Source: Straminergon stramineum
Taxonomy: Eukaryota > Streptophyta > Bryopsida > Hypnales > Calliergonaceae
Direction of reading: 5' to 3'
DNA: 64,000 bases
NCBI GenBank assembly: GCA_963920665.1
Contig: OY987271.1
Location: forward strand, 2,172,501 to 2,236,500
In this document: positions 11,317-49,177 of the stretch, piece after piece
How the letters are laid out: the number at the start of each line of letters is the position of its first letter
Position numbering within the stretch: position 1 is the stretch's first letter
Notes under the pieces: model-generated
Seen by the model: only the letters and a program-made list of their open reading frames with translations
The model's database searches: none
What the model was told of the DNA's origin: nothing
Made by a program: the position numbers and the translations under genes

Positions 11317-13103
11317 TCATAGGCGCCGTCTCGTTCTCTCTCACCTCAATGGACTTCCACTTTCAAGCTCACAGTTGATTCTTGTACACAATTTTGGCAT
11401 CCTTTGTTTCCTGTTCTTCCCGATATTTTGCGGTAGCGAAGTGGTACATGAGATTGATGGATATTTCATGTTGAGAATCTAACTGTTACATTCTACAGAA
11501 ATGTTCTTAGAGCAGTCTTCATTTTTAACCTCAATCTGTGAGTGAATCTTACGACACTAGGTCAATAATACTTTTTTTGGGAGTATACCAAAGCATTGTA
11601 GATACTGTGAATAGTCAAAAAGCGAGCCAGTACTGAAATTCCCAGAGCCTTTTTCGGTAGAGTAGCTTCTTGTTTCTTTTTTAAGTCGGTCTATGTTTTT
11701 GGAGTGGAGCCTTCTTCAAAGTCGATGATCTACAAATTGAAGCTTCAATTGCAGGATTCAAAGTTCAGGTTCTGTATTGGTAAATCCGTAATATACTTCT
11801 ACAATTGACAATTATTGATACCTTTTGACAGAAGTAACGCCTGTATGAATTGGCAATTGATATATATTGTAATTTGAAAATTGAAACGTGAAAATTGTGC
11901 TTGGCGAGGCTACTTGCAGCCCAAGCATTGTCAACTGGCAGAAGTAAAGCCTTGCGTGAAATGGCAATGTTATAATGTGCACCATATCATTTTCACGGTA
12001 ATGCACACAACTTGATTATCAAAAACTGCTCACTTGGGAGTCCTGTGAACATTGGATTCATACAAAGCACTTGCTGCATGTGTTGGTTTTCAGGAAAGTG
12101 CACTGTTCAAGTTGAAAGTCTGAAGTTTTTAAAATGTCATAGATCTTTCAAAATGTCATAGTTTCTTTGACCACTCAGAAAGAGGAGTACAATTCATAAT
12201 CCTTCTCATAAACCCTTACTGTAGATCAAACAAGAGTACGGGTCTGGATGTTCAAAATTGTGGCATTATGTCTGAGAATGCAATCGAGCCTCAGCTCGAG
12301 CTCGAGCATTATGTAGTCCTTTGCAACACTAAACAAAAGCATTTCCACAACACTCAACACCTGGAACAAAAGCTCAACTGAAGATGATGATTTCACATTG
12401 TTGGCGTCAACACATTGGAACAGTTTGCTGACGACTGTAGAAGCCTAGGAGCTGGAATCGGGGCTGGAATACTCTTCAAAGAGATAAATTGCAGTACAGT
12501 AAAAAGTGTAAGAAAATAATACAAAACAGCCATAGCATCTTGCAGTAATTGGAATAATCAGTGTAGCAACGAGTGGAAGACAGTTGCTTTTCAATCTGGA
12601 GACAACTGATAGTCCTCGCATGCGTAAGAAATTAACAGCTAAGTTTGTGAGAAGTGCATCAGCTAGTTACCAACCCTAGTCCCGCAAAATTCAAACATCA
12701 TCAAACTGTCTATCAAAAGCAAGGTGCACGCAAACAGAATGAATTGGATCCCACCTTCCGAGCTGAGCACGAAACAAACACTTCACAATTTTATTTTTTT
12801 GAAAAAGTAAGAATTTGTTATGAACTTTTGAAGTGTGTTGTCCATAGTGACCAATATTTTTTTTTAGTGGTTTAGCTTTATCAATAATTTTAGATGAACT
12901 TTCAATGAGGTGGCTATTTCTATCCATATTTGGGAGGTAGAAAATTCAGTAAGTAGATGAACATTAGTGAATTATGGCTATACAAAGATATTGATGAGTA
13001 AAGCAGGGAGACAACATATCCATCTTCATAGTAGATGTCTAAGTTTTAGTTCATAGTTTTGCATTGAAAACCCAAAGACTTTCAAGTGCTTCCAAGGGTT
13101 TAA
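11317..13103. other. Spacer downstream of HST
   Basis: Probable HST 3' UTR followed by AT-rich DNA with only short ORFs and no recognisable gene. A short TCGAGCTCGAGC run at about 12295-12306 is a local palindrome. Confidence 0.45.
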
Positions 13104-13326
13104 CCCTAGAAGGGCCTGAAAGCCCTTTGCGGCCATATAGTATATTATGTATTTGGTGATATTTGATTAGGAAAGCATTGACCAAATATATTTCAATCCA
13201 AAGTAAATTAATGATCATGATAGTACATAAATAAAAATGTATCATAACTTGTCTATACAACCACAATTGAAGAGCTATAAAGCTAAATACAAGTTGTATA
13301 GGGAAACCCCAAGGGCCTTTCAAGGG
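13104..13326. mobile_element. TTAA-flanked MITE, 223 bp (family 1)
   Basis: The element is flanked by TTAA at 13100-13103 and 13327-13330. The left end reads CCCTAGAAGGGCCTGAAAGC. The right end, on the other strand, reads CCCTTGAAAGGCCCTTGGGG. The left end resembles that of the element at 21101-21601 (CCTGAA(A/G)GCCCT(T/C)TG(C/T)GGCC then GTATTTG), so the two are one family. It has no coding capacity. The TTAA duplication and CCC ends are of piggyBac type. Confidence 0.75.
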
Positions 13327-13330
13327 TTAA

Positions 13331-14060
13331 GGTGGACAACAGAAGACTGTATTCTGTTAATATAAAATGCAAAGAATGGCGTCCCCTCCAGCAAGGTGTA
13401 TCCTTTCATTCCTTTCTTCCAGACTAAATACCTGCCTATCAAGCAATCCTGTAGGAGATAAAACTGAGACCATGATACTGTAGTAGAAATTAAGTAAATA
13501 CTCAAAACAAGTACTTCAATAGTACGCAATTCTCACGCGACATCTGGGTCCTAGCCAAGAGTGAATGACCGAGCTCATGCATCTACATTCTCCAAGATGA
13601 AAAACCAGTCGAGCTTAAAGAAGCAGTAGGGAGATTGCAACAAGTCAGAGTAAGCCAATTCAGCACATTCTTATCTACCTTTTCCAAGATGAACACCGGT
13701 CGAGCTTACAGACAGAATAGGAAGGTATAGTAAGTCAAAGTTTGCCAATTCAGCACATACTCATATGGCAATATGTATGTCGAACAAAACATTGAAGATT
13801 CACCAGACAGAAGACCTTACAACACTTGAGGAAAGAAACATGGGCATATAACAAAAACCCGAAGATGAGCAAATCAAATTTGCAGCAGACTATGCCTATT
13901 TGGAAGCTACAGAGATGAGAACAACGGCATACAGAAATATCCAACATTTGAACACGCTCTTTTTCTAGGGACTTGATTACTCATTGAAAAACATTTTCAG
14001 TCCAGTACAAAAGAGAGTGCAGTGACCCATATTGACCAGAGTAATACAACTCAACTCCAC
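13331..14060. other. Spacer downstream of S21
   Basis: About 730 bp with no gene. Two imperfect copies of a segment containing CCAAGATGAA and GTCGAGCTTA occur near 13591-13660 and 13685-13755, a diverged tandem duplication of about 95 bp. The right part is probably the S21 3' UTR. Confidence 0.5.
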
Positions 14061-15109
14061 CTATTGTCCAAGCTCTGCCTTTTTCTTTGCCCACAACCTG
14101 TCCAAGGCACTGTCGGCATCCCCCTGCATGACAAACATAACACGCTCAGATTACAGCATCTACAGACCCTGCCCATGCAAGACTATAGATCATTCCACAG
14201 AAGGCAGAAACCCAGGCACAAATAAACATGGTGTCGTATACATGATAAGAGATCGTAAGCAATAGAAAATATTCACTTCCGTTTGTATGTTTGCACTTGG
14301 TGTGAAGACTGGTGTTAGCTAGTTCTTAAGTATGAATCTGCATACACCTTAGGACTCGATTAACTTTGCTAGATTATGCCTTACAGCGAACATGGCTTAA
14401 GCATTACGCAAAACACTCGAATACAAATGAAACAATAAGCTGACACAAATAGTACCTTCTACATTACCTCTCACCATAACCTTATATATTAGGTCAACAA
14501 AGATGATTTTCTTGAAAATGAATTTCAACTTTAGAAAGCGGGAAGAGGAACGAGAAGAGCACGCAGCAACGAACCTGAGCACGGACGAATCCGCATAAGG
14601 CGAAGGTAGTGAACTGGCCAGTGTAGACGCCGTTCTCATCGACGTGACCGACGTTCAATTGGACGGAGGCAACATCCTTGGAAGTGATCAACCTATTGGT
14701 TGATGAACTGCAATTACAAAAGAACAGAACACGCACAATTCAAAGCTTCAGTCAATAACCGTCGAATGCATTCCACGGACCACAAATTTCACACTCGCAA
14801 CCCCTGAACTCGAACCGTAACCGAAAAAGTAGATGAGCTAGGGTTTAAGGTTTCTAAAAGCAGAGAGCACACAACAGATTGAAAATTTAGGGCTTCAGTC
14901 ACAAACGTCGAATCCGTGTCACAGACCACAAGTTTCACCACAGAACAAAATCGCACCCGCGTGACTAACAAAGAGACGAGATTAGGATTTAGGGCTCCGT
15001 AATTTGAAGCCCCGAGAGAAGAGATTTTGGAAGACGGGGAGTTAAAGAAGTGTGCGTACCACTTCCTGGGGATGTAGAGATCCACATTGTCGCCCTCCTC
15101 GTTCTGCAT
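14061..15109 (-). CDS. RPS21: 40S ribosomal protein S21 (eS21), three exons
   Basis: On the minus strand, exons 15060-15109, 14575-14707 and 14061-14123 join in frame to give 81 residues. The sequence reads [17 protein letters not shown], then [42 protein letters not shown], then [20 protein letters not shown]. This matches plant eS21 along its whole length and at the usual size (about 82 residues). It sits in the cytosolic small ribosomal subunit. Both introns have GT-AG ends; the first splits the Cys codon (TG/T) and the second is phase 0. Exon 3 is only 63 bases. Nothing suggests a pseudogene. Confidence 0.96.
14839..14846 (-). promoter_or_regulatory. Telo-box in S21 intron 1
   Basis: AAACCCTA on the minus strand inside intron 1 of RPS21. 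Telo-boxes in the promoter, leader or first intron are a known feature of plant ribosomal-protein genes. Function here is inferred. Confidence 0.5.
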
Positions 15110-15207
15110 GATGCGAGAATGGCGAAACGCAGACCGGCGATGGCGATGGCGGACGCGAACGCGAGGGTTGGGAGGAAACACGAGCTGTGAAAGAGGGCTC
15201 GATGAAC

Positions 15208-15215
15208 TAGGGTTT
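15208..15215 (-). promoter_or_regulatory. Telo-box upstream of S21
   Basis: AAACCCTA (minus strand, in the context CCAAACCCTAGTTC), about 100 bp upstream of the RPS21 start codon. This is the typical position for the telo-box of plant translation-machinery genes. It may lie in the promoter or the 5' UTR. Confidence 0.6.
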
Positions 15216-15299
15216 GGGGTAGTATACTTTGGCTCACTTGGGAACGATTTGGGGAACATAGGGAACTCGAGTACTTTTACATTAACCCCTAATGACCCA

Positions 15300-17990
15300 A
15301 GCGACCATTTTCTGGTCGCTGCCCGTTCTCGAATTTTGAGTTTTCTTTAAAATATAAATCATTTCTTGAAAATTGACTGCTTTATGAATCTTATGGCGTT
15401 AGTTTCATCAAATTCTAAATTAAACTCCACCTTGTGAAGTTTCATGTATAAAGTTGGGTGGTGTAGTTTAGTTTACAACTTCATTTTGGGGGGTTGTTTT
15501 AGGAATAGATTGAAAGTTATCCAACTAATGAGATTCTTGCCCACTTCAAAAAGGTCAAATCCACCTCAAAAAGGGTATATCCAAGGAACTCATAGAGAAG
15601 GCAAGTGTCCCATCTTTGTATTTCTTACGAACACTACCCTCATTTCAAAAACCATCTTGCATTGCAGACTCTACTATGAATTGAAAAAAGCTTGGAATGT
15701 TGCGAAATTTCTAGAATGCCCCCCCCCCTCCCCTCCCCCTCGTTGTGACATTTTCAACTTTCTTGTCTTTCATACAAAAGATCATCATATCAAAATATTC
15801 TCATTGAGATATGGTCCTTCAAAGTGAGTTGCTTTTTTATCCATTAACCCAAATAAAACTCCAAACTTAAATATCTACTAGATTGTGTGGCCATATTATT
15901 TTATTTTATTTGAGGAGCTCACTCTCAATGTGAATTTCAAGATACCAAGTTTACATATTATCTAATCACCAAAAAAAAATGAGCAAACAAATTGCTCAAA
16001 ATCTTGGTAGTTTTGGCCCATTTTGAAAGTAGAGCCCCATTTGATCATTAGAGGTTAAACTCCACATTTCATTTCAAATAGTCTTGTCTGCATTATTTTT
16101 AAAATAACACACTAAAGTCAAAGAATGAGTGTTCTATGTAATAAAACCATAATTCATGCTAGTATTGGAAATAGGTGAATTTAAGAGGTACACTAATGTG
16201 GAAGTTCATAATAATTTATATAAAATCAATATAATGTGGTCTACAAGATCTTTACATTTTTTCAAATAATGTAATTATTATTCACATTCAATTCATCAAC
16301 TATCGCTAGTCATCCAAATGTTCAAACTAATTAAACTATGTACATCCAAATTTCATTCAAGTAGTATGATAGCTATCTTGCTATTCAAACTCTCGTACCA
16401 ATTGAAAACAATAGTACATTTGTTAGGGAAAAAAATAGTGTACAAATCACGTATCACATTTTTATTCTACCTTAAACATCCAAAACCTAATTGCTTCAAA
16501 ATAAGTTTCTTTAAATATGATAGATGCTCTTGATTCACTCTTATGACCAATATATGATAATACCCAATTAAGATTGGAGTGTGTGGTAGTTGCTCTAGAT
16601 TTTCATATTTATCAAAATGTCAGAAATGTAGTTCCATGTTGAAGTGTACACTATTTATCTTTTGAACTAGTCTATGAAAAATTAACATTATTTCAATTAA
16701 AAATTGCGTCATATGACTTGTTTTTTATTAAAGAAAAATGATTTTTGTAAAATCAAAAAATAGTTGTTAGAATTTTGTATTTTCAACCCTGAAGTAAGTG
16801 TCTTAAAATTGTGTAAATACAAAATTATACAAACATATGGTGGGAAAGGATAATGTAATTTTATTTGTTGCTTCTAAAAGCTAGTGGAAATCAACCCAAG
16901 TAATTTTGTATTTTTAGAGTAAAGATAGAAATGTCTATTTCAATTTCTTTTAATTGATTTACATATATTAATCAAAATTACTACCAGAGTTGCATTTGCA
17001 GTTATTAGAAATCATAATGTATCAAAATATTTATTGTATTATTCGGAGCATTTGATAACTTTCCTTGAGTTTTCAAGATTAAAATAGAGAGATGCTCGTA
17101 AGATGGTATGTAGGACAATTTCAATTCCCTCATTCAACTACATCCTTGAATAGTCTTCTAAAATATCTAATATGGTTTAGTAGACACTCTACTATCTTAC
17201 AACCATACAAAAATATAACAAAAATATTGTTGGACTAAAGAGCATTGTGAATGAAGTGTTTGGTGGAGATAGTTCAACCACCTATGCCAGGTAGGCACAT
17301 ACAAAATGTGCAATACCCTAGGCAATACCACATGGTTTTAAGCCATACTAGTGACAACAATTTGAAGGACTCTAAATATAAAAACACAAAAGGCAATTAA
17401 ATTTTGTATTACTACTAGCTTCATATTGAAATTAGTTGTGAATTTCAAACTAAAACTTGACTTTTCCAAAAGCCATACGAAGTTCTCTTATCAATACTTC
17501 TAATAAAAAGATGTGGTTTGTTTGTTTAATTTTGATTCATGTTGAAATGTCCTAAACTATAAAGTCTAGATACCCAAATTTATGAGGTGCAATAAGGAAA
17601 CTCTATAATTGGAATCATTTGCAACTTTGTTATAAACAATTTGGACTTATAAACTAAAGTTCTTGAAGTTAAAAGTACTTGTTAGTCAAAAAATTATAGA
17701 AATTATATTCCCCATCTTCATAAGATGAAATTAAATTTGGAGTAATTGTCTTAAGCAAGACTATCCCTTGAAAAGAGCCCCCCCCCCCTCTCTACCCCCC
17801 TCCTACCATGCCCCCCATGAACTAGATAAAATAAAATAAAACACCTAATCTATCCACCCATTCTTCAAAAACAAAATCAAGAATATATATATATATATAA
17901 TACGAAGTACAAAAATATATATAGAATACATATGGGTATGATATATGGATGTCAAATATGGGAGGTATTGAAAATAAAAATATCTATACC
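15300..17990. other. AT-rich spacer with C-runs
   Basis: About 2.7 kb of AT-rich DNA without a supported gene. It includes pyrimidine runs dominated by C at 15719-15740 and 17778-17816 (G-rich on the minus strand) and a short AT run near 17884-17900. The 127-codon ORF at 15444-15827 crosses one of the C-runs and looks random. Confidence 0.5.
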
Positions 17991-18720
17991 TTAAAGTTGT
18001 TTGTTTGATACGCATAGATCTAAGAAACCATTAGTCCTCCGAAGGTGCTTTGGTACCATTGGAAAGCTCTCCATGTGAAAGGGTGCATAGACTTTGTTTT
18101 ATGGTGATCAGACCTACATTGTGAAAGTTATTGAATTTCAAAGGTTTTTACAAAAAAAAAATTGAATTATATTACCTTTTATTTTGGAAACCCCCTAACT
18201 TTCACATCCCATATCCAAATGCCACAACACAAAAGCCCTTGCACTCCTTCTATTCGAGTCAAGATTGAAAGCAACATGTCACACTGCAACAAAGCCCTTG
18301 CACTCCTTTGTGCATCAAAGATATCAAATTTTAAATTTTACAAATCATTTTCAATTTCAATTTTATTTTAGTTGTGGCAATGGCATAGGGCACACTAATG
18401 GGGGTAATGAAAATACAACCATGGAAGTTAATGTAAATACAAATATGGGAAGGGGGAATAGAAATATAGATATGGAAGGTAAAGGAAATACACACAAAAA
18501 TATTTATGGGGGGTAATGAAAAATCACCCACTTATCCATACTTAAAGTTAGGCTATTTGTTTTGTTTATTACAGTGAGATCTCCTAGACCATGCATCCCC
18601 TAGTCGCATTCTTGGTGTCATCAGAAAGCCCTCGACAAGGAGGGATGCAAGTACTTTGTTTTGTGGATTTGGACATATAGTGTGAAAGTTATTGAATTTC
18701 CAATATTTTTTGACTGAAAA
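17990..18720 (+). repeat. Diverged direct duplication
   Basis: The stretch near 18030-18150 recurs, diverged, near 18595-18714. Shared words include GAAAG(C/G)..CTC, ACTTTGTTTT(A/G)TGG and GTGAAAGTTATTGAATTTC, offset about 565 bp. Inside, AAAGCCCTTGCACTCCTT occurs twice (near 18231 and 18290). No coding content is recognised. Confidence 0.65.
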
Positions 18721-18880
18721 AATTAGAAAATTACTCTTACTTTTATTTCAACTATAGCAATGGCACACAACACACTAGTCTAGGCCTACTGATAGAATGG
18801 TTGACCGATTCTATCACTACTATCCTCTCAAAAGAGTGTAGTTCATCATCGTACACCATAATTATTTTAGGCTAGACTAA

Positions 18881-19277
18881 GAGCATCCCCACCAATTTGT
18901 CCTCATCCCTATCCCATCTAGATGAAGAGTGAGTAAAGATGAGGATAGGGATTGACAAGCCCCACCAATTCTCCCCAATATGTGTCTAAATTCAATAAAT
19001 AACCAAGCAAGTAGTAAGCAATAACCAAGCAAGTAATAAGTATGTAAAAATCAATAGTGAAGTGACAAATTAGAGAAGCACACATGCTAATTGTGAATGA
19101 AAACCCATATGGGATTTACTCAATTTGAGTTCTCTATAGACCCCCCACCATTTGGAGAACTGGACACTGCCATCCCTAAATATTTAGGGATACATGCGTC
19201 TAGTGGGGTGCAAGTCTTCCCTACCCAGATGAAATTCATCCGGATAGGGATAGGGGAGACCTTTGGTGGGGATGCTC
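18881..19277. mobile_element. MITE, 397 bp, TAA target duplication (PIF/Harbinger-like)
   Basis: Terminal inverted repeats of 15 bp, GAGCATCCCCACCAA, are perfect at both ends. They are flanked by direct TAA triplets at 18878-18880 and 19278-19280. A 3-bp TWA target duplication with short inverted repeats is characteristic of PIF/Harbinger-derived (Tourist-like) MITEs. The interior has no transposase. The termini match those of the larger element at 22567-23940. Confidence 0.85.
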
Positions 19278-19280
19278 TAA

Positions 19281-20059
19281 CCATCCCGGCACTAGTCCAT
19301 TGCGAAGCTGTTTTCTTGTGAATTTCTAACTTTTTGTAAAATTTTCTGATAGTCTCCTTCCGGCGACTTTTGAACGACCATCAAGTTTGACCTTCGTCTT
19401 TGAATCCGTCTCGTGAAGAAACCACAGCATTGACAGCAAAGAAAGAATACTGTTGTAACTTGAGAGTCCATTGACAGAGCAGTTGAAGTTTACCTCCAAT
19501 GTGGTCAAACCTTGGAGTACCGTGGACTTGTAGAAAGTGGCCATTTCGGGAGGCTGCTGTGTTGGCCTCTGCAATTTGCATGTGAACAACACTGATTCAA
19601 TCAAATTTTCAACTCTTGTAAAGTCAACATGAACACCCCAACAAAATATTCAAATTGTTGGTTCAAAAGTTAGTTGCCACAACACAGGCAATAGCGTAGT
19701 ACTCAAAATAAATGACCGGTATGAAGACCTTCACTCTAGCGGTTATTTTCTGGGTTTTTTTTACAGTTTTTATGAAGTGCCAAAGTGGCAATATAAAATG
19801 GATTAGATAATGCTTGAGAGCGGGGAGGCTCAAGAGCATTGTGGGACATAATTCAGAGTCTAATAGTGTATAATAAATGACCATATTTGTACTTTTTGCA
19901 AATCTAAGGGTGTAGAAAGAGGGTTTGACTATCCAATGGGATGGAGACAAATGTGCCTTGAAAATCGGACTTGATATTATGTTAAAGCAGTGTTTCAAAT
20001 TTCAACATTCATCCACATATGGGATAGAAAAGACCACATTAGGACATACATTGGGAAAA
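19281..20059. other. Spacer, no gene seen
   Basis: About 780 bp with only short ORFs and no recognised repeat. Confidence 0.4.
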
Positions 20060-20292
20060 AGTCCCCCAATTGCATCAATATTGTTGCAATGGTTGACCAG
20101 TCCAATATTGAAATTGGACTATGGCAATACAACAAATAGTATTGCAACAATATATTTTCAGTATACCTACTGAAAATGTATTGAAATGTATTGTTGCAAT
20201 ATTGAAATGTACTATTTGCAGTATAGCGACTATCCAATTTTAGTACTAGACTATTCAACTATTGCAACAGTACGGATGCAACGGGGGTTAGT
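20060..20292. mobile_element. Hairpin MITE, ~230 bp
   Basis: Nearly the whole unit is an imperfect palindrome. The left arm starts CCCCCAATTGCATC and continues TGTTGCAATGGTTGACCAGT. The right arm, on the opposite strand, starts CCCCCGTTGCATC and continues TGTTGCAATAGTTGAATAGT. The arms meet near 20165 at TTTTCAGTA..TACTGAAAA. No clear target duplication was found. Confidence 0.7.
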
Positions 20293-20964
20293 TTCCTGAT
20301 GTATCACATGTTCATAGTTCTATTTTCATCCATAATTTGGCAGTTTCATCCAAATTCTTTTCTATAAATCGAAGTGTTATGGCAAAATATTTCATGTAAA
20401 CTGGAAAAAATAAAAGTCCTGCTTCACTCTATTTTGTTTCATCCGGAGTGAATGACTACTGTAGTCATTCCTGTCCGAAAAGTTACAGGCTGCCTGTTTG
20501 CTTCTGTTCCTCTGTGGCTCTGTCTCTGTCTGCGTTGTCATGTTTGACGTGGAAAAAGTGCCGAAACTAACTTAACTTAATTGGTGTGCTGGCTGGGCTG
20601 TGATGCAGTCCGTCTGTGGCACCGTAATAACTACGTGTTGGTTTGCTTTTTTGAAACGACTGGAACACTTTATTCCACTTAGCAAGACTTGATCGAAGTG
20701 GGCTCCGTTTCAATTCTTTTGACTCCGTTTTGTCAACAACTGTCTGGTAACTGAATTTCTTTTAAAAAAACCGGCGTTGCTGGAGTGTCTGAACCCACGG
20801 CAATTGTTTCGACATTATAGAGCAATATTCCTTCGTAGTACACGTTACGGCATGCACATGGAAGTCTGTCTGTCAATAATGTCTTCCAAGCACGTGCAAT
20901 CGGGCGTGCAATGGATTAAGTTAGACACTAATGGCAAAGGACTGAAAAGGAGGCGAAGTAATTG
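20293..20964. other. Spacer, no gene seen
   Basis: About 670 bp of non-repetitive, GC-richer DNA with short ORFs only. It ends at the target site of the retroposon insertion that follows. Confidence 0.4.
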
Positions 20965-20979
20965 CAGTTAAGTAAATAA

Positions 20980-21093
20980 ATTTTTTTTTTTGAAACAAAT
21001 GGAACGGAATTTCATTGCAAGGGGCAAAATACAAGCCCAGCAGCCACCAGTGGCCTGCCGGAAAACCAAAGGACCACAGACTGACCACACAAA
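20980..21093 (-). mobile_element. Short retroposon (SINE or truncated LINE) with 15-bp target duplication
   Basis: A ~114-bp insert with an 11-base T run at its left end (a poly-A tail on the minus strand). A 15-bp target duplication, CAGTTAAGTAAATAA, flanks it. The left copy (20965-20979) is intact. The right copy starts at 21094 (CAGTTAA) and is split after its TTAA by the MITE at 21101-21601, resuming at 21602. On the minus strand the body ends ATGAAATTCCGTTCC.. before the poly-A, which is LINE/SINE-like. Confidence 0.75.
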
Positions 21094-21100
21094 CAGTTAA

Positions 21101-21601
21101 CCCCTGAACAGCCTGAAGGCCCTCTGTGGCCGTATTGTAGGTTTTTTCACGTATTTGCCCATGTGGTGGCCCGATTTAGGGTTTCATTTGCAGAATAAAG
21201 TTCGAGGCACTGCAACGGTGCGTCGACTGTTGGGTACCATTTCTCGTAATACATGATAGAACGCTGTTGGGTGAAGAAAATAAGCGTCAAGACCTATGGA
21301 TGTGTGGGGAGTATATATGCCGGAGTGATTGTCCAACGCTTGAGAAGCGAATATTGCATAAATAAAAAAGTCTGCGCAGAAGACAACGCAGTATACCCCC
21401 TGATTTGTTTTTCTAAAATTCCACGCATCGCATCGGTCAAAATCCTAGAGAAAATTCCTACGTGACCTGAGGCTTATATAGATTCCATCGGAACAGTTGA
21501 AATCCTGTCTTGCTATTGAGAAACAACTTCTTGAAATCTCTGTGTGATCGTATTCAAGGGTTACGGTGCTGTAGAAGAAGAGCCCGAGGGCCGTTCAAGG
21601 G
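21101..21601. mobile_element. TTAA-flanked MITE, 501 bp (family 1)
   Basis: TTAA lies at 21097-21100 and 21602-21605. The left end reads CCCCTGAACAGCCTGAAGGC; the right end, on the opposite strand, reads CCCTTGAACGGCCCTCGGGC. The left end is related to that of the 13104-13326 element. It sits inside the right target copy of the neighbouring retroposon. The intact left target copy therefore shows the site before insertion, with one TTAA, and proves a 4-bp TTAA duplication. The 70-codon ORF inside looks random. Confidence 0.88.
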
Positions 21602-21640
21602 TTAAGTAAATAAGTTGGTTTGCTCTTAAAACGACCTTAA

Positions 21641-22025
21641 ACCCTTTAAGGATTAGTCAACCATATTGTGGTTGATCTGAACACTTTTTGCTTGGTGGAG
21701 AGAGTTTGGAGAAAAATCTGGTGAAGGACCAAAGGGAACAGATGTGGGAATTTGTGAACCACATCCACTAGGCCAAGAATCACCCCAATCCATGCTTGCA
21801 TGTGGAAATGGGATTCAAAATATTGGCTGTACATGTAACAATTACTAGCGCAAGATGGACATAAATGACAAAGATACACATATTTGTAAAATGCACTATG
21901 CGTCCAATGCATACTTACAGTCAGATCTTCATTTTAAACCACTAATGTGTTGTAATTTTAATTTTTTAGTTATACAACAAAAGTGGATTGCCTTGCCCCC
22001 CAAATCGACCACAATCCTTGAAGGG
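21641..22025. mobile_element. TTAA-flanked MITE, 385 bp (family 2)
   Basis: TTAA at 21637-21640 and 22026-22029. The left end reads ACCCTTTAAGGATTAGTC; the right end, on the opposite strand, reads CCCTTCAAGGATTGTGG. Only 31 bp separate it from the preceding TTAA element. No transposase is encoded. Confidence 0.7.
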
Positions 22026-22029
22026 TTAA

Positions 22030-22566
22030 TGAATTGATTGCATGTTGGGGGAAGTAAAACTTGTAGGAAGAAAAGATGGAATTGGCATCTAACCCAAGTT
22101 GTTTCATTTGTTTTGGACTTTCTTGGAATTCGTTACAAATTTTTGAAGTTGAAATGCAATGGTCCTTGAAAGCAACCACCTCTTGAAATGTACACTTTGG
22201 GTACATTGAAGAAAGCAAAATGTACCTTTGTGATAATGAGGGGTCACTTTTAGAACAAGGGCGCTATTAGAGCTACCTACTTTACCTATTGAGCTGCATT
22301 AGAGGTGAGAGAGGTATTGACTTGTGGTTGTTCTTTCGTAAACTTGTTTGCTTTGACATTACCAACAAAAATCTCAATGCAAGTTAGTCAAGTTTGAGCC
22401 ATTTTCATTTTGGAAGGTCATAATAGACAAATTCCTCTTCTTCTTCTTCTTTAAAAAAATCCAATAGACAAATTTTACCTCGGTATCACCTAATATTGAT
22501 ATACCAGTAGATATGAACAAGTATCTTATCACTCGAGTATAGTGTGAGTGAGTGGTGAAGACATAA
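22030..22566. other. Spacer, no gene seen
   Basis: About 540 bp with short ORFs only and a CTT-repeat run near 22436-22452. Confidence 0.4.
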
Positions 22567-23940
22567 GAGCATCCCCACGGCAACTCAGCAAGTGCCATAG
22601 ACTCAGCAACCGGCCATGGCCGGCCAAAATTAGTGCCCCACGGCAAGGGCGCGACATCAAAGAAAGTGACCGGCCACTGCAGAAAATGGAGTGTGGATGG
22701 CCAAATGAAGTGTGTGGAGAGTGGCACGCTATGTCAAATGGCACGGTCTTCGAGTTATGGAACCCAGAGTTTGAGGTGTTTTTTAACCCCTAAATGTATT
22801 TGATTGTGTTTTCACCAAAAACACTCCAAAACTGTCATCTCTAGTACAAGTACCAAATTTTAGAAAAAATAAAATTTTGGACAAATGTAACCGTAGGATC
22901 TTGTAGTAAGTTGGTTTGGGAAGATGTGGAAAAAATTTCAGAAATTTCCACCGTTTGGATTGTAAGATATTAGCATTTGAAGTGTCAAAAAGCCATTTTT
23001 TGGCCTTGCGAAAATCCGGGCAGATGCACTCCACAAGCTCAGATCATTATGAAAAAATGTCCAAAATGGTTGTAACTCTTTGGATTCATTCTTCAAGTCA
23101 TGTTGGCTACATGCTTGAAAAATTTTAGATCATTTGGAATTGTACAACATATAGGAAAAAAATAGTAAGTTGAAAGAAGTAGAGAATGATTCAAAATACT
23201 AAATTGTTAATCATTTATTTATGGAATTGAAAAATGACAATCCCAATGGTTAAATTGTTGTAATAAACAATCTACACGTTTTTATTTTTTTCCAAAAATA
23301 TTAAAAATTGAGTGAAATAAAGGTCTTCGAAGTTTATTTTAGAGTAGAGATTCCATTACTACCCACAAACTACCCACAACTAAAACTCTTCATAACTTTC
23401 ATCTCATAAATCAAAATGGAATGATTCAAAGCTTTCCATGTATGTAAAAATCAGGAAAATAAATTTCAAATTTTTATTTTTAAAAAAAGTGATTTTTCAA
23501 GAAGTTTTTTTTGCTGCCCGAGCTGCCTACCAAGCAATGAAAACAACATATCATACAATAACTTTTTAACCATGTATTCAAAAGTTCTGAAAATTGTTGG
23601 GTCTTAAAGCCACACCTTGGGCACATGTTGTGTGAAAATTTTGAAGAAAAAAAATAAAAATTCCATCCATAGTGAGCTGCCTGAAATCGCTATGTTGCCA
23701 AAAAACACTGTTTGGTCCTTTAGGGGTTAAAGTACAAAGCATCACAATTGAAGGAGAATTAAGGAGCACTGACAAAGGCTTGACGTGACATTCTTAGACG
23801 TTGTGCTTGTCTCCCTTCGCGTCCATCTTCCACCATTTTGTGGTGGGGCAATTTCCCTCAACACTCGCCGGCTGCATCTCCCAGGCACCTCAAGCGACCC
23901 AATTCTGAGCCTCGCTTCTGCACCAGCCGTGGGGATGCTC
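22567..23940. mobile_element. PIF/Harbinger-like MITE with nested TTAA element
   Basis: Inverted termini GAGCATCCCCACGG, flanked by TAA at 22564-22566 and 23941-23943. Total length is 1374 bp. Removing the nested 940-bp TTAA element (22787-23726) and one TTAA leaves about 430 bp, close to the 397-bp relative at 18881-19277. The nested insertion is therefore the younger. The right edge lies about 670 bp upstream of the DTC start codon, so it could contribute to that gene's upstream region. Confidence 0.85.
22787..23726 (+). mobile_element. TTAA-flanked element, 940 bp (family 3, copy A)
   Basis: TTAA at 22783-22786 and 23727-23730. Ends are CCCCTAAATG.. and, on the opposite strand, CCCCTAAAGGACCAAA. 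It is homologous along its length to 32002-32923 (same orientation) and 48195-49119 (opposite). Shared words include CACCAAAAACACTCCAAAA, GGATCTTGTAGT and GATTGTAAGATATTAGCA. No long ORF exists, so it is a non-autonomous family. Confidence 0.88.
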
Positions 23941-23943
23941 TAA

Positions 23944-29860: not shown

Positions 29861-30089
29861 TCATGCACATTGGGGCCTTTAAAAGTGATGCCTTGAGTGT
29901 CATGTACAGTAGGTAGTCTATTGATAGGTGAGGAGGCTTGGCATTGCTGGAGCTCTCTATATGAGGAAGTTTGATTAGGACCTTACTCAAATAGTGAGCC
30001 AATGCAACAAAGACAAAGCCTCTCATAGCACAATTACCTCCTTTCAAGATCATCAAACAAAGCAGTGTGGTAGTTCCCACTATGAGGTG

Positions 30090-30144
<55 letters not shown>
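30090..30144. repeat. (AT)n microsatellite
   Basis: About 55 bp of almost pure AT dinucleotide with one C interruption near 30106. Confidence 0.95.
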
Positions 30145-30146
<2 letters not shown>

Positions 30147-31709: not shown

Positions 31710-32001
31710 AGTAGAAAAGTTACAATTTTAGATGTCCCTACCTTAATCATGGTGGGATCTGTGGCTAAGGAAATGTCGAAGTTGTTTGATATTCCTTTAT
31801 AGATTCAATCCTTGATTACATTGTTCTTTCTATTTTGTTAATTACGTATTATATTTATATAGTCTTATGAAAGACTAGAAAATTTTTATACTTATTGATG
31901 AACATCCTTTACTAAGCTTTGATCTCACATTGCCAAATTGTTGCTTGAGTGATGATTCACTAAAAAGCTTCTTGACAATAGTCCCAAGGTTCACAATTTA
32001 A
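31710..32001. repeat. Segmental duplication block II, copy 1
   Basis: Homologous to 60140-60596. Shared words include ATGGTGGGATCT, TTGATTACATT and CACTAAAAAGCTTCT. Copy 1 is then interrupted at a TTAA by the element at 32002-32923 and resumes at 32928 with CAAAAAGAATTC, against GCAAAAATAATTC in copy 2. Confidence 0.88.
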
Positions 32002-32923
32002 CCCATGAAGTTCCTTGACTATGCTTTCACCAAAAACACTCCAAAACTCCCATTTCTAGTACAAATACCAAATTTTGGAAAAAAATAAATTTGGACATAT
32101 GTAACCATAGGATCTTGTAGTGAGGTTGTTTCAGAAGATGTGGAAAAATTTCAGAAATTTCCATTGTTTAGATTGTAAGATATTAGCAATCAAATTGTCA
32201 AAAATCCTTTTTTGGCCCTATGAAAAAACGAGCAGCTACAGCTCACAAGCTCACACTTGTATGAAAAAATTTCCAAAATGGTGGTGCTTCTTTGGATTCA
32301 TTCTTCAAGGCAATTTGGCTACATGCTTGAATAAATTCAAATCATTTGGAATTGTATAACATATAAGAAAAAAATAGTAAGTACAAAGAAGTCGAGAATG
32401 TTTTCAAATATGAAATTGTTGAGAATTTAGTGATAGAACTGAAAAATGCCAATCCCAATGGTTGTAAAATTGAAATAAACAATGTACATACTATGATTTT
32501 TTTTTTCCCAAGAAATATTGAAAATGGAGTTAAATAAACAACTTTAAAGTGTATTTTAGACTAAGGAATCCATAACTACCCTCGAAACTAAAACTCCTCA
32601 TAACTTTCATCTCATTGATCAAAATGGAATGATTCATAGCTTTTCACATTTATATAAATCTAGGAAAACAATATCAAATACTTGTTTATGAACAAAATGA
32701 TTTTTTCTAATCTACCTAAATTGCCTTCTTGAGGAAAAAAATTACATATCATACAATAACTTTTTAACTATGTTGTCAAAAATTATGAAAATTATTGGGC
32801 CTTAAAGAAAAACCTTGTCCCCATGTTGTGTGAAAATTTCAAAGAAAAAAATAAAAAATCCATTCATAGTGAATTACCCAAAATTGCTATGTTGCCAAAA
32901 AACGCAGCTTGGTCCTTTAGAGG
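32002..32923 (+). mobile_element. TTAA-flanked element, 922 bp (family 3, copy B)
   Basis: TTAA at 31998-32001 and 32924-32927. Full-length relative of 22787-23726 in the same orientation; its termini have drifted (left CCCATGAAGTTCC; right, opposite strand, CCTCTAAAGGACCAAG). The duplicate at 60589-60600 lacks the element and reads ACAATTTAGCAAA where the joined flanks here read ACAATTTAACAAA. One TTAA was therefore duplicated. Confidence 0.9.
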
Positions 32924-32927
32924 TTAA

Positions 32928-35908: not shown

Positions 35909-37327
35909 CTAATGGCCTAACTTTCTTCTTGTAAACCATGTTTGAAGTTTGTCCTTGCTTGAATTGCCATCCTTGTCAAGGTCCTTTACATCATCAAAGA
36001 GACTTGTGTTGAGACTCTTAGAAGAAGAGACACATCTTATTTCCCTATGGTATGCTTGCAAATCATCATCATGGACAACAATTGGCAACTCTCCTTGACC
36101 CCACAACACTATTCTACTTGCATCACCAATTTGAATGTTGCAAGCTTTTAAAATTGCAGAGAAAAATAGAACAATTTCCAAATGCTCAAAATGGTCTTGC
36201 ATAAGCCTTTCCAATTTGAAGACCACTTGATACCTTAAATTCCTTGAAATTTCTCCAAATGCCCTATAATCCCATGCACTTTTGTTTGCGGAAAGTATAG
36301 GAGTAGACACTTTTTTACCTTTAGTCAAAGGCATAACATTACCTAAAGCTTCAATCACCAAGCCAAATAGACCAAGCTTGTGAGCTTTGTAAACAAAACT
36401 CAAAACCCTCTTTGCCATCTTGAATTCTCGAAGAAGAAAGCTCTTGTCAAACACATGATTTGAAAGCTTTTGAAGTGCATTTCGAAACTCGTACTTGAAA
36501 ATTGAACCTAAAGATTGGCTAGGGGCTAGAGTCCAATTCTTACATGTTGTGCTTGCAATTGATGTCAAGATATTCACAACAACAACATCCCAATCTTCCT
36601 TCACATCTCTTTTGTGTTCAAATTCCCTCCATAAAGTGCATGCAATTGTTACCATTATATCAAATAGAAGCTTGTGTTGAAACATAGGATTTGCAAGGAT
36701 ACATCCTATGAAAGCTTTGGAAACAAACTTGAGAGACATGCGAAAGAAGGTTCTTCTAGTCATGGTGGGTTGTGCATTTGTTGATAGAAACCTCACCATT
36801 GGAGCTAAGCTTAGTACCTTCATTTCCACATCTTGGCGAACTTCACCAAGTAAGGACCAAATCATTGTACCCCACTCTTGAAGAATCGCTTGCATAACAT
36901 TTGTATTGAAATTATCAAGAACTCGGTCATGCCTTTCGAATTGTATTTCTTGAATGCCATTGTCATCACCATTGTTGAAGTGAAAATAGTCATTATTGTC
37001 ACCACCATTGCCATTTCCTTTACCACTTTCATTATGAATGTTGCTATTGTTACCTCTACCGCCCTCCTCTCCAAGTTGAACTTCCTCTGAAATTCTAATT
37101 GTGGCATGTTCATGGCAAGCTTGAAAATTGAGCTTTGTCTTCTTGAAGGTTGTTGGTGCATTCTTTGTCAATATCAAGTTGCAGTGAAACTTTGATTCAC
37201 GCAGCATGGGCAATGTGTTGATTGAGGAAAATGCTTTCTCTACAACCTTAACTTCTATGTTCATGTGCAACTTAGTCATCATTGCCATTGGCATCATAGA
37301 CCCCAAGGATGCCATGGTTGCCAACAA
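35909..37327 (-). CDS. Orphan 472-residue protein, single exon, unrecognised
   Basis: The longest uninterrupted frame in the window. It starts MLATMASLGSMMPMAMMTK; several Met codons near the start leave the true start open (1, 5, 11, 12, 14). Residues about 90-125 are low complexity, rich in Gly, Asn and Asp (GNGNGGDNNDYFHFNNGDDN). The remainder (about 140-472) is mixed alpha-helical in character with many Phe, Leu and Lys, and no transmembrane run or signal peptide is evident. The C-terminus is charged (DDVKDLDKDGNSSKDKLQTW). I recognise no domain or catalytic motif. It lies between two direct repeats in AT-rich DNA absent from the duplicate segment, so it may be transposon cargo or a lineage-specific gene. 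An open frame of 472 codons in AT-rich DNA is unlikely by chance. Confidence 0.6.
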   Translation of the reverse strand: MLATMASLGSMMPMAMMTKLHMNIEVKVVEKAFSSINTLPMLRESKFHCNLILTKNAPTTFKKTKLNFQACHEHATIRISEEVQLGEEGGRGNNSNIHNESGKGNGNGGDNNDYFHFNNGDDNGIQEIQFERHDRVLDNFNTNVMQAILQEWGTMIWSLLGEVRQDVEMKVLSLAPMVRFLSTNAQPTMTRRTFFRMSLKFVSKAFIGCILANPMFQHKLLFDIMVTIACTLWREFEHKRDVKEDWDVVVVNILTSIASTTCKNWTLAPSQSLGSIFKYEFRNALQKLSNHVFDKSFLLREFKMAKRVLSFVYKAHKLGLFGLVIEALGNVMPLTKGKKVSTPILSANKSAWDYRAFGEISRNLRYQVVFKLERLMQDHFEHLEIVLFFSAILKACNIQIGDASRIVLWGQGELPIVVHDDDLQAYHREIRCVSSSKSLNTSLFDDVKDLDKDGNSSKDKLQTWFTRRKLGH

Positions 37328-38069
37328 ATAAGCCTATTAGAATCTTACAAAATGCAAGCAAAACTTAAAGTGAATTGCTAGCAAAGGTCAAAGGTGATTG
37401 CAATGTTTGCACTAGATTGAACAATAGTGAAGAACACTTGAGTGCACTACACTGGAAAATTTTGAGAAGAGTGAGTTTATTGGCTTTGAATTGAAGGAGA
37501 GAAGGCTTTGCATCAACAGAAGTGACCCAAAGGAAGTTTGAGTAGCTCTTTCTTACTCAAAAAGCCAACCAGTGCTACATAGACTAACTTAAGTTTTTGA
37601 ATACAACTCCAATATAACTTCAACATAACTACAATATAACATGTACTTGAATTTATCCTCTTTAATGTATTAAATCTACAAAAGTAAAAGTACGCATAGA
37701 ATGTGTTAGTTATATGAAAATTTATCTAAAGTAAAAGCAAAATAGTGTGAAAATAAACTAAAAGTAAAAATAAAATTGATTTACATGAGAAGATAATGAA
37801 ACGAGTTGCCCAGTGAGCAAGCCAGTCTAGTTCCTGAAACGCTCTCTTTTCACGGTCTCTTTTGTCTCTCTGCAGGGCTCTAGAGATTGAAGCAGAAGAA
37901 ATTCAGACAGGGCACAAACTGGGGCATGGGTTTGGATTTGACTTTTTCAATTTTTACAAATTCAAGCTTGTGGACTGACCATGACACCTATTCAAACTCT
38001 GGAGCCTCAGAAACTCTCTACATCTTTAGTTACTAAAATTGCACTGCAAATTCAAACCTAAAATTCGTT

Positions 38070-39735: not shown

Positions 39736-39895
39736 GACATATATAGGAGCCGAGTCTCCAGTGCACAGCTTTAAAAGAACCACGCACGTTACCTTAATGC
39801 TTGTGTTCTCACATTCTGCAATCAATCCACAGCTGAGTCCATCTCTGGACGTACTTCAAACTGCGATTTCAAGATCGAAGACGTACAGATCATTC

Positions 39896-42134: not shown

Positions 42135-42596
42135 AGATAACATGACATGCAAGATGCATCGACTCCAAGCTCTAGTGTACGGTACAATCACTAAAATAAA
42201 ATTGAGCTGATTTGACTTGTATTTGTAGATTAAATTCGAGATTAAATTCTCCGAAGACAATACAGACGGAGAATAAGTTCCCTCTCCATATATGAATTTG
42301 ATTCCCGATTTGATTGTAATGTATATCATAAACTCCAAACTCCATTTTCTTCAAGAGTTGATCGATCTCCTTGCTTCCTTCGATTCTCAGAAGTGCAGTT
42401 TCTGGTGCTCCGCAATCAAGAAGCTCTAAAGCAAGTTCGAATTTTAATATGGAAGCTCGGTTTCCAGAAATGTTCTGTGCGGAAAATTAACAATTGGAGC
42501 ATCAATGAACAGAAATTTTTAGGTCAGCAGCCAACATATGCAATCCAACAGCTTTTTTCATTTGCAATTCAAATTTTCTTGACCGTGAGCAAATAG

Positions 42597-42832
42597 CAGT
42601 GGCGTCGAAAATGGAAAGCTTCTGTTCTGTTCATTTTTAAAAACCTTCGACTGTGCTCTTTCAATTACTGGACCCGGATAGTAGCTTCGGCACTTTGGTG
42701 CCGAATATTTAATGAAATTTAAAAAAATTCTGCATTAAGCTAAAAGAAATAAAAAAGCAGTGTTGTCGAAAATGGAAACCTTCTGTTCTATTCATTTTTT
42801 AATAACCTTCGACTGTGCTCTTTTCAATTATG
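42597..42832 (+). repeat. Pair of 76-bp direct repeats
   Basis: 42597-42672 and 42756-42832 share GTCGAAAATGGAAA, CTTCTGTTCT and CCTTCGACTGTGCTCTTT. They lie about 160 bp apart, downstream of the quinone oxidoreductase. Probably a local duplication. Confidence 0.8.
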
Positions 42833-45800: not shown

Positions 45801-45959
45801 TAAATTTTTCCCTAATCTCCAACAATTCATATTCAAAATTCCCATAATTCACCACATTGCTCTCAAATCACACACATGAAAAGATGAGAGAGGGGCTTCA
45901 AACCCTAATTTTGCATATAACCAAACTCCCTAACAAAATAATTGGTTAAACTACATTCT
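42833..45959. other. Spacer, no gene seen
   Basis: 42833-43560 is GC-richer and includes a G run near 43338-43346 but no recognised protein. 43600-45960 is AT-rich with short ORFs only. A gene with small exons in the first part cannot be excluded. Confidence 0.4.
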
Positions 45960-46560
45960 TCCTGCCCTAATTTATTATAAATATGCTAATTTGGTGCAAA
46001 ATGCACCAAATTAATGCAAATTGCATTACATTGTTGTAAATGTGTCAATTTAGTGTAAAATGTGCTACATTAGTGTGAACCCCTCTAAGTTACTATAAAA
46101 AAATCCTAAATTAGTGTAAAACCTCTATTTTAGTGTTTCTCCCACTCTTTTAGAGTTCCCCTCACTACTCTAGTATTCTAGTAGTAGTTTTAGTTTGGCT
46201 AATTTTTTGTGTGTTTTTTCTTTTTTTTTTTGGGTTTTCACTTTACTTCTTGTTTGATTTCCTAATTCTGGTATTTTTTTTCTTTCACTTTTTTTTATAT
46301 TTCTTATTTTTTGGTTTGCAATTTACTTCTAGTTTCATTTTCTACTTTTAGTATTTGGTTTTCATTTGGTTTTTCATTTTTGAGTTTGTTATCTTTTTGG
46401 TTTCCTATTTAATTCTACATTCATTTTCCTACAGAGTAGTATTCTAGTTTTCATTTTATCATCATTTTTCTATTAGCCTAATTTGGTTACTCTACCTTAT
46501 CTTGCTTAACATCTTTTTAGTTTAATTCCCCCATTTTCCCCTTAAACTTTCCCTTTGTTT
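45960..46560. repeat. Degenerate low-complexity tract
   Basis: 45990-46150 repeats forms of TTAGTGTAAA(A/C) and TGCA about every 20-25 bp. 46190-46560 is T-rich, with many TTTT and CTTTTT runs. No coding content. Confidence 0.6.
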
Positions 46561-46737
46561 TCTCCTAATTGCATTTTGAAAAATTCTCCCTTTAACACCA
46601 CAAAGTTTCCATAGCTATCTAAAGGAAATCTCCTTAATTGGTGGTTGTAGCTTAATCCAAAGTACTAACACTTCTAGACTTGTAAATTTACACCTAATGT
46701 TTATATTTTCATTTTTTTAAGAGGTGAACCAAAATGA

Positions 46738-47578
46738 TAATTCACAAGGAGGAAGAAAGTCATCATCACAAATCTTAAAGTTACATTGTTTGTTGCTTCT
46801 TCTAAAATTTGTGGAGTTGGAGTTATCCCTTGTAGTAGCCCTAATTTTCCACATCGTAATTTTCAACAAGGAACTCCAATTGCCAACTATGATGTAAATG
46901 GTCTATTTCTAGCTCAAGGAGATTCACTAGTTTACAATTTGTCGGAGACAACAAAGGAGGATTTCCAAAGAATATGGGAATCGTGAAAGTTGAATACTCA
47001 CTCCAATACTTCACTCTAATAGAAATGAATGTTTGTATGTGTCATTATTTGGTCTTAGCTTGTATGGGGAGACTAACATTAATATTGTGCCCCAATGTGA
47101 ATTGTCTTTTTTTCTCATTGAAGAGTCTTCTATTGCATCTTCTCTCCAATTCTTTTTAGGAATTATTGTTGTTGAATTTTACAATCCGCATGAAGCTATA
47201 GAGATCATAAGTGTATTTTTGTATAGGACCTATTGTTGCTTTGATGTTCTCAAAGCAATTGTTACATTTGTAAATGACCATGACAACCATTACAAAGCTT
47301 CTTACTTGAAGTTATGGGGCAAGGAATTGAGAACTCCTACAATATCAGTGGCCAACGCTACTACCAATGGATTAGAATACATTTGAGGGGTGTCGAATTC
47401 CTCATACCATTCTTTTCACTCTTTCCATTTAGAAGAATTTACATTGACCCCAAATTTGAAGAAGTGGTTTCTTTTTCAGATTTACCTAGTAAGGATTGGG
47501 ATTGTAATGTCTACTTTCATTTCAAGAATTCAATATGCCACTACCTTTGGAGATTGAGATTTGTTGTAGAGATGTAGA
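46738..47578 (+). pseudogene. Decayed coding-like stretch, unrecognised
   Basis: Three overlapping frames of 66-117 codons follow one another on the plus strand (46786-46986, 47033-47386, 47314-47577). The composition is more protein-like than the neighbourhood (for example IYIDPKFEEVVSFSDLPSKD). This suggests an old frameshifted gene or transposon ORF. No family is recognised. Confidence 0.3.
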
Positions 47579-48002
47579 ACCCACCATCACAAGCATTGCC
47601 ACTAGTGGAGAGGACATGAAGACCTCAAGGACTAAAGAATCATTTGTGTGACTGTTAGAGTCTTATGGTCAATTTCATTAAAATGGCGGTATGAAATTAA
47701 AATGGTGAGGAAGCTAGTCAAAGGAAGGAATAGGGAATTTCATTAAAATGGCACTATTCCATTAAATTGGCTTAGAAGAGGTTCGAAGGAAGGAAATCCA
47801 TGGAAAGATGGCACCGGGGGTGAGGAAAAACACAAACAAATGGTGATTTGGGCTTGTGAGGGACAAACTTGGCACATGTATGACCTTGATATGGCATAAG
47901 CAGTACCATTTATAGCTTTGATACAACATCTATTGTAAATTTGGTCTTCTTAGGATGTCATTGTATGAGGTGAAAGCTTGAATTTTGGTAATCAAATATT
48001 AA

Positions 48003-49173
48003 CCCCTTAAGGCCCAAGCAGTTTCTATACCTTTTCATAAGTTTGAACTTTGATTGACAATATGCATTGTGCATCAAGCTTATTACATGATATCAATTGT
48101 ACTTTTGAACCCACCCATTCAATATGAACATCATAATATGAAATTCACTCAGATATACTTCTTAGAATGTAGGGAAATGAAGTTATAACTTTAACCCCTA
48201 AAGGACCAAGGTGCCTTTTTTGGCAACATAGAAATTTTGGGCAGGTACGTGTGACTACAGATTTCCATGTTTTTGGCCCAAATTTTAATAGAAGGTGTGG
48301 ACGAGGAATATCTTTCATATGCACTAAATTTCAGGACATTTGGAAATATGAGTCAAAAGTTATGGCCTAATATGTTGTTTGTTTCTCAACTCGGGCAGTC
48401 TGGGCAGATCTGAAAAAATCACTTTTTTCAAAAATAAAAATTTGAAATTGGTTTTTTAGATTGATATATACATAGAAAGATTTGAATCATTCCATTTTGA
48501 TCAATGAGTCAAAAGTTATGAGATGTTTTAGTTTACGGGCACTTATGGATTTTCTACTCTAAAATAAACTTTGAAGTCCTTTATTTAACTCAATTTTTAA
48601 TATTTTTGGAAAAAAATAAAATCATAGGGTATATATTGTTTATTACAACATTTCCACCATTGGGATTGGCATTTTCTAATTCCAATAATAAACTATTAAC
48701 AATTTAATATTTTGAATCATTCTCTACATCTTTGTACTTACTATTTTTTTCCTATATGTTGCACAATTCCAAATGATCTGAAAATTTTCAAGAATATAGA
48801 CAACTTGACTTCAAGAATGAATCTAAAGAAGCACCACCATTTTGGACATTTTTTCATACAAATAGGATTTTGTGAAGTGAAGCTGCCCGGTTTTTCGCAG
48901 GGTCCAAAAAAGGATTTTTGTCACTTCAAATGTTAATATCTTGCAATCTACATGGTGGAAATTTCTGAAATTTTTTGCACATCTTCTCAATGTAGATTAC
49001 TACAAGATCCTACAGTTACATGTGTCCAAAAATGATATTTTTCAAAAATTTGGTACTTGTATTAGAAATGGCAGTTTTTGAGGGTTTTGGGTGATAAGGT
49101 AGTCAAGGAACTTTAGGGGTTAACTTGTTGAATGGGTGAGAGGCCCAAAACAATCTTATTAGGCCTTGAGGGG
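48003..49173. mobile_element. TTAA-flanked MITE (outer), ~240 bp plus nested insert
   Basis: TTAA at 47999-48002 and 49174-49177. The left end reads CCCCTTAAGGCCCAAGCAG; the right end, on the opposite strand, reads CCCCTCAAGGCCTAATAAG. It is split at a TTAA by the element 48195-49119. Without that insert and one TTAA it is about 242 bp. TTAA elements have thus landed inside each other. Confidence 0.8.
48195..49119 (-). mobile_element. TTAA-flanked element, 925 bp (family 3, copy C, nested)
   Basis: TTAA at 48191-48194 and 49120-49123. The left end reads CCCCTAAAGGACCAAGG; the right end, on the opposite strand, reads CCCCTAAAGTTCCTTGAC. The body is the reverse complement of copies A (22787-23726) and B (32002-32923). 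No transposase frame. Confidence 0.88.
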
Positions 49174-49177
49174 TTAA

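What the first reader, a model, noticed from the sequence alone, without database searches (positions are those of the whole stretch)
13100..49177. Seven TTAA-flanked MITEs in one window, forming a piggyBac-like system
Elements at 13104-13326, 21101-21601, 21641-22025, 22787-23726, 32002-32923, 48003-49173 and 48195-49119 all have TTAA outside and (A)CCC ends inside. They sort into at least three or four families by their ends: CCTGAA..GGCC, AAGGATT, CTAAAGGACCAA and AAGGCCC. None encodes a transposase. TTAA target choice with C-rich ends is the hallmark of piggyBac. To my knowledge piggyBac-derived MITEs are not a standard component of plant genomes, so a multi-family population would be new.
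Basis: partly seen in the sequence, partly recalled or inferred. Interest (0 to 1): 0.88.

Follow-up and report, generated by a model that had tools for sequence, protein, structure and literature searches.

The report
piggyBac-like mini-transposons in a moss
A moss genome is strewn with short DNA parasites that insert at the letters TTAA and end in CCC, like the jumping gene piggyBac known from animals, and the same stretch holds the wreck of a piggyBac-type enzyme gene.

Summary
All seven elements are at the stated places with a direct repeat of exactly 4 bp, TTAA; an eighth, 15286-16054, was missed. The host is most likely a moss (best named protein matches); its 326-Mb assembly is held. 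Three elements are one ~925-bp family, 78-80% alike. The end groups share about CCCYTNAAGG, so they look like branches of one system. Two paralogous sites lack an element and keep a single TTAA-like tetranucleotide. Of 35 further ends placed by homology alone, 23 are exactly TTAA, the outer T kept in 31, the inner bases in 27-29: this favours a TTAA over a TA duplication, though one copy (L012) fits TA better. The element library covers 9.2% of 200 kb taken elsewhere, partly circularly. Its ends are lost, so it is not tied to these elements, and the genome-wide transposase search did not complete. New member of a known kind, in an unexpected host.

The parts
13104..13326 (+). MITE a, 223 bp, ends CCCTAGAAGGGCC / CCCTTGAAAGGCC, TTAA at 13100-13103 and 13327-13330
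   Evidence: shares both ends with MITE b
15286..16054 (+). MITE e, 769 bp, not in the finding; ends CCCCTAATGACCCA / CCTCTAATGATCAA, TTAA both sides
21101..21601 (+). MITE b, 501 bp
21641..22025 (+). MITE c, 385 bp, left end ACCCTTTAAGGATT, right end CCCTTCAAGGATT
22787..23726 (+). MITE A of the ~925-bp family, inserted in a PIF/Harbinger-like MITE
22567..23940 (.). outer element split by A: TIR GAGCATCCCCACGGC, 3-bp TAA on both sides (PIF/Harbinger-like; not part of the TTAA system)
32002..32923 (+). MITE B of the ~925-bp family
60588..60614 (+). paralogous site without the element, matching both flanks of B, one TTAG in place of two TTAA
48003..49173 (+). MITE D, 242 bp without the nested C; 26-nt TIRs 81% complementary
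   Evidence: a 242-bp relative, L012:55-296, aligns end to end without a gap and lacks C, with a single TTGA at C's place
48195..49119 (-). MITE C of the ~925-bp family, inserted in D at a TTAA
54936..55636 (+). core of a decayed piggyBac-type transposase gene (PF13843), broken by stops and frame changes; weak further match from 54595
55943..56212 (+). possible cysteine-rich C-terminal tail of the relic (C..C...W..P.C....C); no database match of its own
   Evidence: translation; inference

Best explanation
The elements are non-autonomous DNA transposons of piggyBac type: a piggyBac transposase bound their C-rich ends, cut them out and put them into TTAA sites, duplicating TTAA. Several end variants and interiors arose under one transposase lineage and spread through this moss genome, long enough ago that copies of the ~925-bp family are about 20% apart. 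The decayed transposase gene with its core at 54936-55636 is a remnant of a piggyBac lineage in the same genome. Shown: boundaries, 4-bp TTAA repeats, shared end motif, nesting, two matching sites without an element, occurrence in other stretches of the genome, the relic. Inferred: that this or a sister transposase moved them, cut-and-paste with seamless excision, and that better preserved copies exist.
For: Exactly 4-bp TTAA repeats in 8 of 8 window elements. Copies of the ~925-bp family found by homology end at TTAA in all but one of the ends that could be read, the exception being ATAA at L022. 23 of 35 homology-placed ends outside the library have exactly TTAA; base by base T31 T29 A27 A28 of 35. 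Two sites without an element: at 60588, a left-flank match of 81% over 160 bp is continued by 15/18 bases of the right flank, a level found at only 2 of 127,964 positions, one being the flank itself; and L012:55-296, which is D without C, gapless over 242 bp. TTAA with a CC[C/T]T end motif is given as the piggyBac hallmark in PMC2872659, whose coral MITE end CCCTTTAAGCCCTA is close to these (passages). Transposase relic: tblastn on unedited DNA best 5.9e-13 and no hit in the reversed control at E<=1e-3; all 144 HSPs at E<=1e-2 lie in window 54936-55636; the read-through matches PF13843 at 51.9 bits, cut-off 22.4.
Against: The relic's own termini could not be recognised, so no element joins these ends to a piggyBac gene. 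L012:55-296 has ATAA...TTAT outside, which fits a TA duplication better. 12 of 35 homology-placed ends are not exactly TTAA (two of them show it one or two bases off), some alignments are only about 60% alike, and of the 16 library ends from the other stretches 10 are TTAA. In the 200 kb, 9 of the 17 motif hits scoring 18 or more had TTAA. Genome-wide the bare TTAACCC is only about 8% above its reversed control. The read-through gave no hit at E<=0.01 in the protein database. The profile segments of the relic are individually weak: two below E 0.001, one at 0.09, three at 3-24. The genome-wide transposase search did not complete.
Confidence: 0.82

Rival explanations
1. Tc1/mariner (Stowaway-like) MITEs with ends ACCC...GGGT, a TA duplication and a strong liking for TTAA targets.
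For: A TTAA site with or without the element looks the same under both models. L012:55-296 reads ATA-ACCC...GGGT-TAT; among 35 further ends one is CTAA and one ATAA, the latter with an uncertain boundary.
Against: The outer T is kept as well as the inner bases in 35 homology-placed ends (T31 T29 A27 A28), and the 8 window sites show no obvious preference beyond TTAA. A piggyBac-type relic is in the window. No mariner gene was looked for.
Confidence: 0.09
2. Another TTAA-type superfamily, Sola3 or Kolobok, moved them.
For: Sola1 is listed for Physcomitrella (PMC9033089, table passage); that Sola3 duplicates TTAA is recalled, not from a call. Kolobok duplicates TTAA (PMC9587614, passage).
Against: Kolobok termini are 5'-RR...YY-3' by that paper, here CC...GG. 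No Sola gene or relic was searched for.
Confidence: 0.05
3. The elements are piggyBac MITEs but the relic in the window belongs to another piggyBac lineage with other ends.
For: No motif end is recognisable around the relic; best right candidate GTAACACTTCATGG ending at 57918 (score 9.9), best left candidate score 5.1.
Against: None direct; one TTAA-type transposase family in the genome is the simplest source.
Confidence: 0.3

Closest known systems
piggyBac superfamily and its MITEs (e.g. coral CMITEs, PMC2872659)
   Same: TTAA duplication, CC[C/T]T ends of about 14 bp, non-coding, several end families, nesting of one element in another
   Different: Found in a moss; longer (223-940 bp against about 100 bp); inner part of the ends is about CCCYTNAAGG
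PIF/Harbinger Tourist MITEs
   Same: Short, TIR-ended, A+T-rich targets; one such element is in this window and is split by MITE A
   Different: 3-bp TAA/TTA duplication and GAGCATC-type ends, not 4-bp TTAA with CCC
Tc1/mariner Stowaway MITEs
   Same: Could look alike at TTAA targets if ends were ACCC...GGGT; one copy, L012:55-296, fits
   Different: TA duplication; here the outer T is as well kept as the inner bases
Kolobok
   Same: TTAA duplication
   Different: Purine-purine 5' ends

Membership tests
piggyBac | 4-bp TTAA target duplication | tested here: met
   8 of 8 in the window; 23 of 35 homology-placed ends exactly TTAA; exception L012:55-296
piggyBac | CCC / CC[C/T]T terminal motif | tested here: met
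   criterion from PMC2872659 and PMC10813416 passages
piggyBac | DDE_Tnp_1_7 transposase in the same genome | tested here: met
   only as a relic, in the window: tblastn 5.9e-13, PF13843 E 9.1e-14 on read-through
piggyBac | transposase gene enclosed by the same ends | tested here: inconclusive
   no ends recognisable around the relic; genome-wide family search not answered
piggyBac | seamless excision | not testable with these tools
   needs orthologous genomes or an assay
PIF/Harbinger | 3-bp TWA duplication | tested here: not met
   exactly 4 bp in 8 of 8
Tc1/mariner | TA duplication without a fixed outer T...A | tested here: inconclusive
   outer T kept in 31 of 35 ends; L012:55-296 is an exception that fits TA
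Kolobok | 5'-RR ends | tested here: not met
   ends are CC; criterion from PMC9587614 passage
Sola3 | Sola transposase and its ends | not tested
   no reference ends or protein on hand

The most novel reading that the evidence does not exclude
Probability: 0.55. Interest if true: 0.75.

Novelty: new member of a known kind. Interest (0 to 1): 0.58.

Why it matters
A 2025 survey of 207 plant genomes, four bryophytes among them, sorts MITEs into five superfamilies plus Micron (PMC12550479, passages); a TTAA class would have no place there. A piggyBac lineage native to a land plant would widen the documented host range of the superfamily, raise the question of horizontal transfer against old inheritance, and might give a plant-adapted seamless transposon tool. 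The question is directly testable in sequenced moss genomes.

Tried and rejected
Exact 19-mer of one end in viral contigs: none (one scan). Pfam on 10 of the 15 ORFs of 60 aa or more inside elements: nothing above a curated cut-off; the local piggyBac profile over ORFs of 25 aa or more listed nothing inside a window element up to E 10. Majority consensus of the three ~925-bp copies: longest frame 93 aa, not searched further. The TTAA-pair scan missed three of the eight elements (A, B, c), whose ends match each other at fewer than 11 of 14. A possible decayed element at 61278-61614 was left out: the alignment to its paralogue is too poor. Protein search with a generic piggyBac sequence: 3,093 proteins at E<=0.001, best 120 listed, those with an organism name animal or microsporidian, none plant; plant ones lower down are not excluded. 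Protein search with the relic: nothing at E<=0.01 among 290 candidates. Copy number: the ~925-bp family has 6 copies at 75% identity or more in 200 kb (one partial, one interrupted), so about 9,800 per genome, 95% range 3,600-21,000, a rough figure. The 9.2% coverage rests on a library of 16, eight of them taken from the same stretches, so it is partly circular. The 36 end pairs include several pairings of the same ends. L023 and L004 copies share flanks and look like one duplicated site. L001-L008 were fetched by the pattern TTAACCC and were left out of the flank counts.

Papers: ten searches, seen as listings, some capped (20 of 25, 20 of 36, 30 of 934, 11 of 12). PMC6890710, PMC10794571, PMC9587614, PMC10813416, PMC10619864, PMC8319324, PMC5199201, PMC12550479, PMC12595863, PMC2528002, PMC2872659 and PMC9033089 were seen as found passages; PMC10004981 as passages, outline and first part of the reference list. 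In these I saw no description of piggyBac elements in a moss; the one moss genome paper opened for the word uses 'piggybacking' in another sense. Most subscription papers are not in this library, and two moss genome papers looked up by DOI were not held.
Full report
What was checked. The seven elements of the finding were read directly: each has TTAA outside and C-rich ends inside at the stated coordinates, and the direct repeat across each boundary is 4 bp, no more and no less, in 7 of 7. TTAACCC...GGGTTAA pairs in the window are 8, five elements and three cross pairs, against a shuffle mean of 0.39 (200 shuffles, maximum 5); no other tetranucleotide outside CCC...GGG exceeds 2. The single motif counts are not remarkable (9 and 7 against 4.3 and 4.7), and genome-wide TTAACCC is only about 8% above the same pattern read backwards. 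A scan for TTAA-flanked inverted ends with no C motif asked for (11 of 14 matching, some G+C) gave 10 pairs against 0.47 in 100 shuffles (maximum 3); five are elements described here, one is a cross pair of nested ends, four are unrelated, and three known elements were missed. The eighth element, 15286-16054, came from the end matrix and this scan.

Families. A self-comparison shows 22783-23730, 31998-32927 and 48191-49123 (reverse) to be copies of one family whose similarity stops at about the TTAA, 78-80% alike. 13104-13326 and 21101-21601 share their ends and little else. The end groups share about CCCYTNAAGG: 6 of 6 exact matches in the window are element ends, five right after TTAA and one after TTAAA. 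A matrix of the ends without the TTAA columns ranks 12 TTAA-preceded ends first, and with each family left out of the training 11-13 of the best 16 are at TTAA. So the end groups are variants of one recognition sequence, not three or four independent systems.

Insertion evidence. The flanks of element B match a second place in the window, 60588, where a single TTAG stands for the two TTAA. Element C sits in D at a TTAA; L012:55-296, from another contig, is D without C, 242 bp against 242 bp with no gap, and has a single TTGA at C's place. Element A sits in an outer MITE with a 3-bp TAA duplication and GAGCATC ends, a PIF/Harbinger-like element, which shows that the two duplication types differ in the same window.

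Genome scale. I took 20 stretches of 10 kb at round coordinates. Convergent end pairs there number 36, some sharing an end, against 3 in reversed sequence. Blast of the element library, flanks not included, placed 35 further ends, 34 in these stretches and one in the window: 23 are exactly TTAA, and the four positions are kept in 31, 29, 27 and 28 of 35. If the duplication were TA, the outer T should be less kept than the inner bases; it is not. Of the 16 library ends from the stretches, 10 are TTAA. The exception to tell is L012:55-296, with ATAA...TTAT, which fits TA. The library covers 18,339 of 200,000 bp (9.2%) and 8.5% of the window, with the caution that eight of its 16 members come from these stretches.

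The transposase. The elements show no recognisable coding (10 of 15 ORFs were put to Pfam). A profile built from 120 piggyBac proteins (listed) and run over ORFs of 25 aa or more in the window and loci found two segments at 55090 and 55511 (E 2.7e-4 and 1.3e-4). Closer study gave six segments in the right order on the + strand from 54595 on, the other four weak (E 0.09, 3.4, 13, 24), among them the DNF(F/Y) and YM..VD..DQ motifs, whose names are recalled. Tblastn on the unedited DNA: best E 5.9e-13, none in the reversed control at E<=1e-3; all 144 HSPs at E<=1e-2 lie within 54936-55636. The pieces read through, X at stops, match PF13843 at E 9.1e-14 (51.9 bits, cut-off 22.4); the pieces were chosen with the profile's help, so the tblastn figure is the fairer one. 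The relic is old and has no recognisable ends, so its link to the MITEs is by kind, not by shared termini.

What it is and how it works. The best reading is a population of piggyBac-type MITEs moved in trans by a piggyBac transposase. TTAA duplication with CC[C/T]T ends is the stated hallmark (PMC2872659, passages), and one coral MITE end of that paper, CCCTTTAAGCCCTA, is close to these. Kolobok does not fit by its purine ends (PMC9587614, passage), PIF/Harbinger by duplication length. Tc1/mariner with TTAA preference remains as a weaker rival, and Sola3 was not tested.

Novelty. A 2022 review lists six TIR superfamilies for land plants without piggyBac (PMC9033089, passages); a 2025 survey of 207 plant genomes with four bryophytes sorts MITEs into five superfamilies plus Micron (PMC12550479, passages). 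On the other side, reviews name PiggyBac among angiosperm MITE superfamilies (PMC10004981, passage) or plant superfamilies (PMC10794571, passage), an abstract says piggyBac was isolated from plants too (PMC10813416), and a fern genome table lists 1,230 PiggyBac pieces, 122 kb (PMC6890710, passage). In ten literature searches, several with capped listings, I saw no moss case. So this is a new member of a known kind, in an unexpected host and apparently at high abundance.

Noticed in passing
22567-23940: PIF/Harbinger-like MITE with TAA duplication and perfect 15-bp TIR GAGCATCCCCACGGC, split by MITE A.
   Followed up: partly
2306-3408: 429-bp inverted repeat, 91% alike, 245 bp between the arms.
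   Followed up: no
50913-51623: Tandem array of a 67-bp unit, 10.5 copies, 79% matches.
   Followed up: partly
10087-11313: Homogentisate prenyltransferase-like gene in a single uninterrupted frame; best named matches in mosses.
   Followed up: partly
35909-37333: Uninterrupted RETICULATA-related frame of 474 aa on the - strand.
   Followed up: no
7657-8246: Relative of the 594-bp element at L014:361-954 (77%), with decayed ends: a possible ninth element of the window.
   Followed up: partly
61278-61614: Possible decayed TTAA element with ends CCCTCCATCAGGC / CCCTCAATGGGCC and flanks TGAG and TTCA.
   Followed up: partly
L012:55-296: 242-bp relative of D with ATAA...TTAT outside, the clearest copy that fits a TA duplication.
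   Followed up: partly
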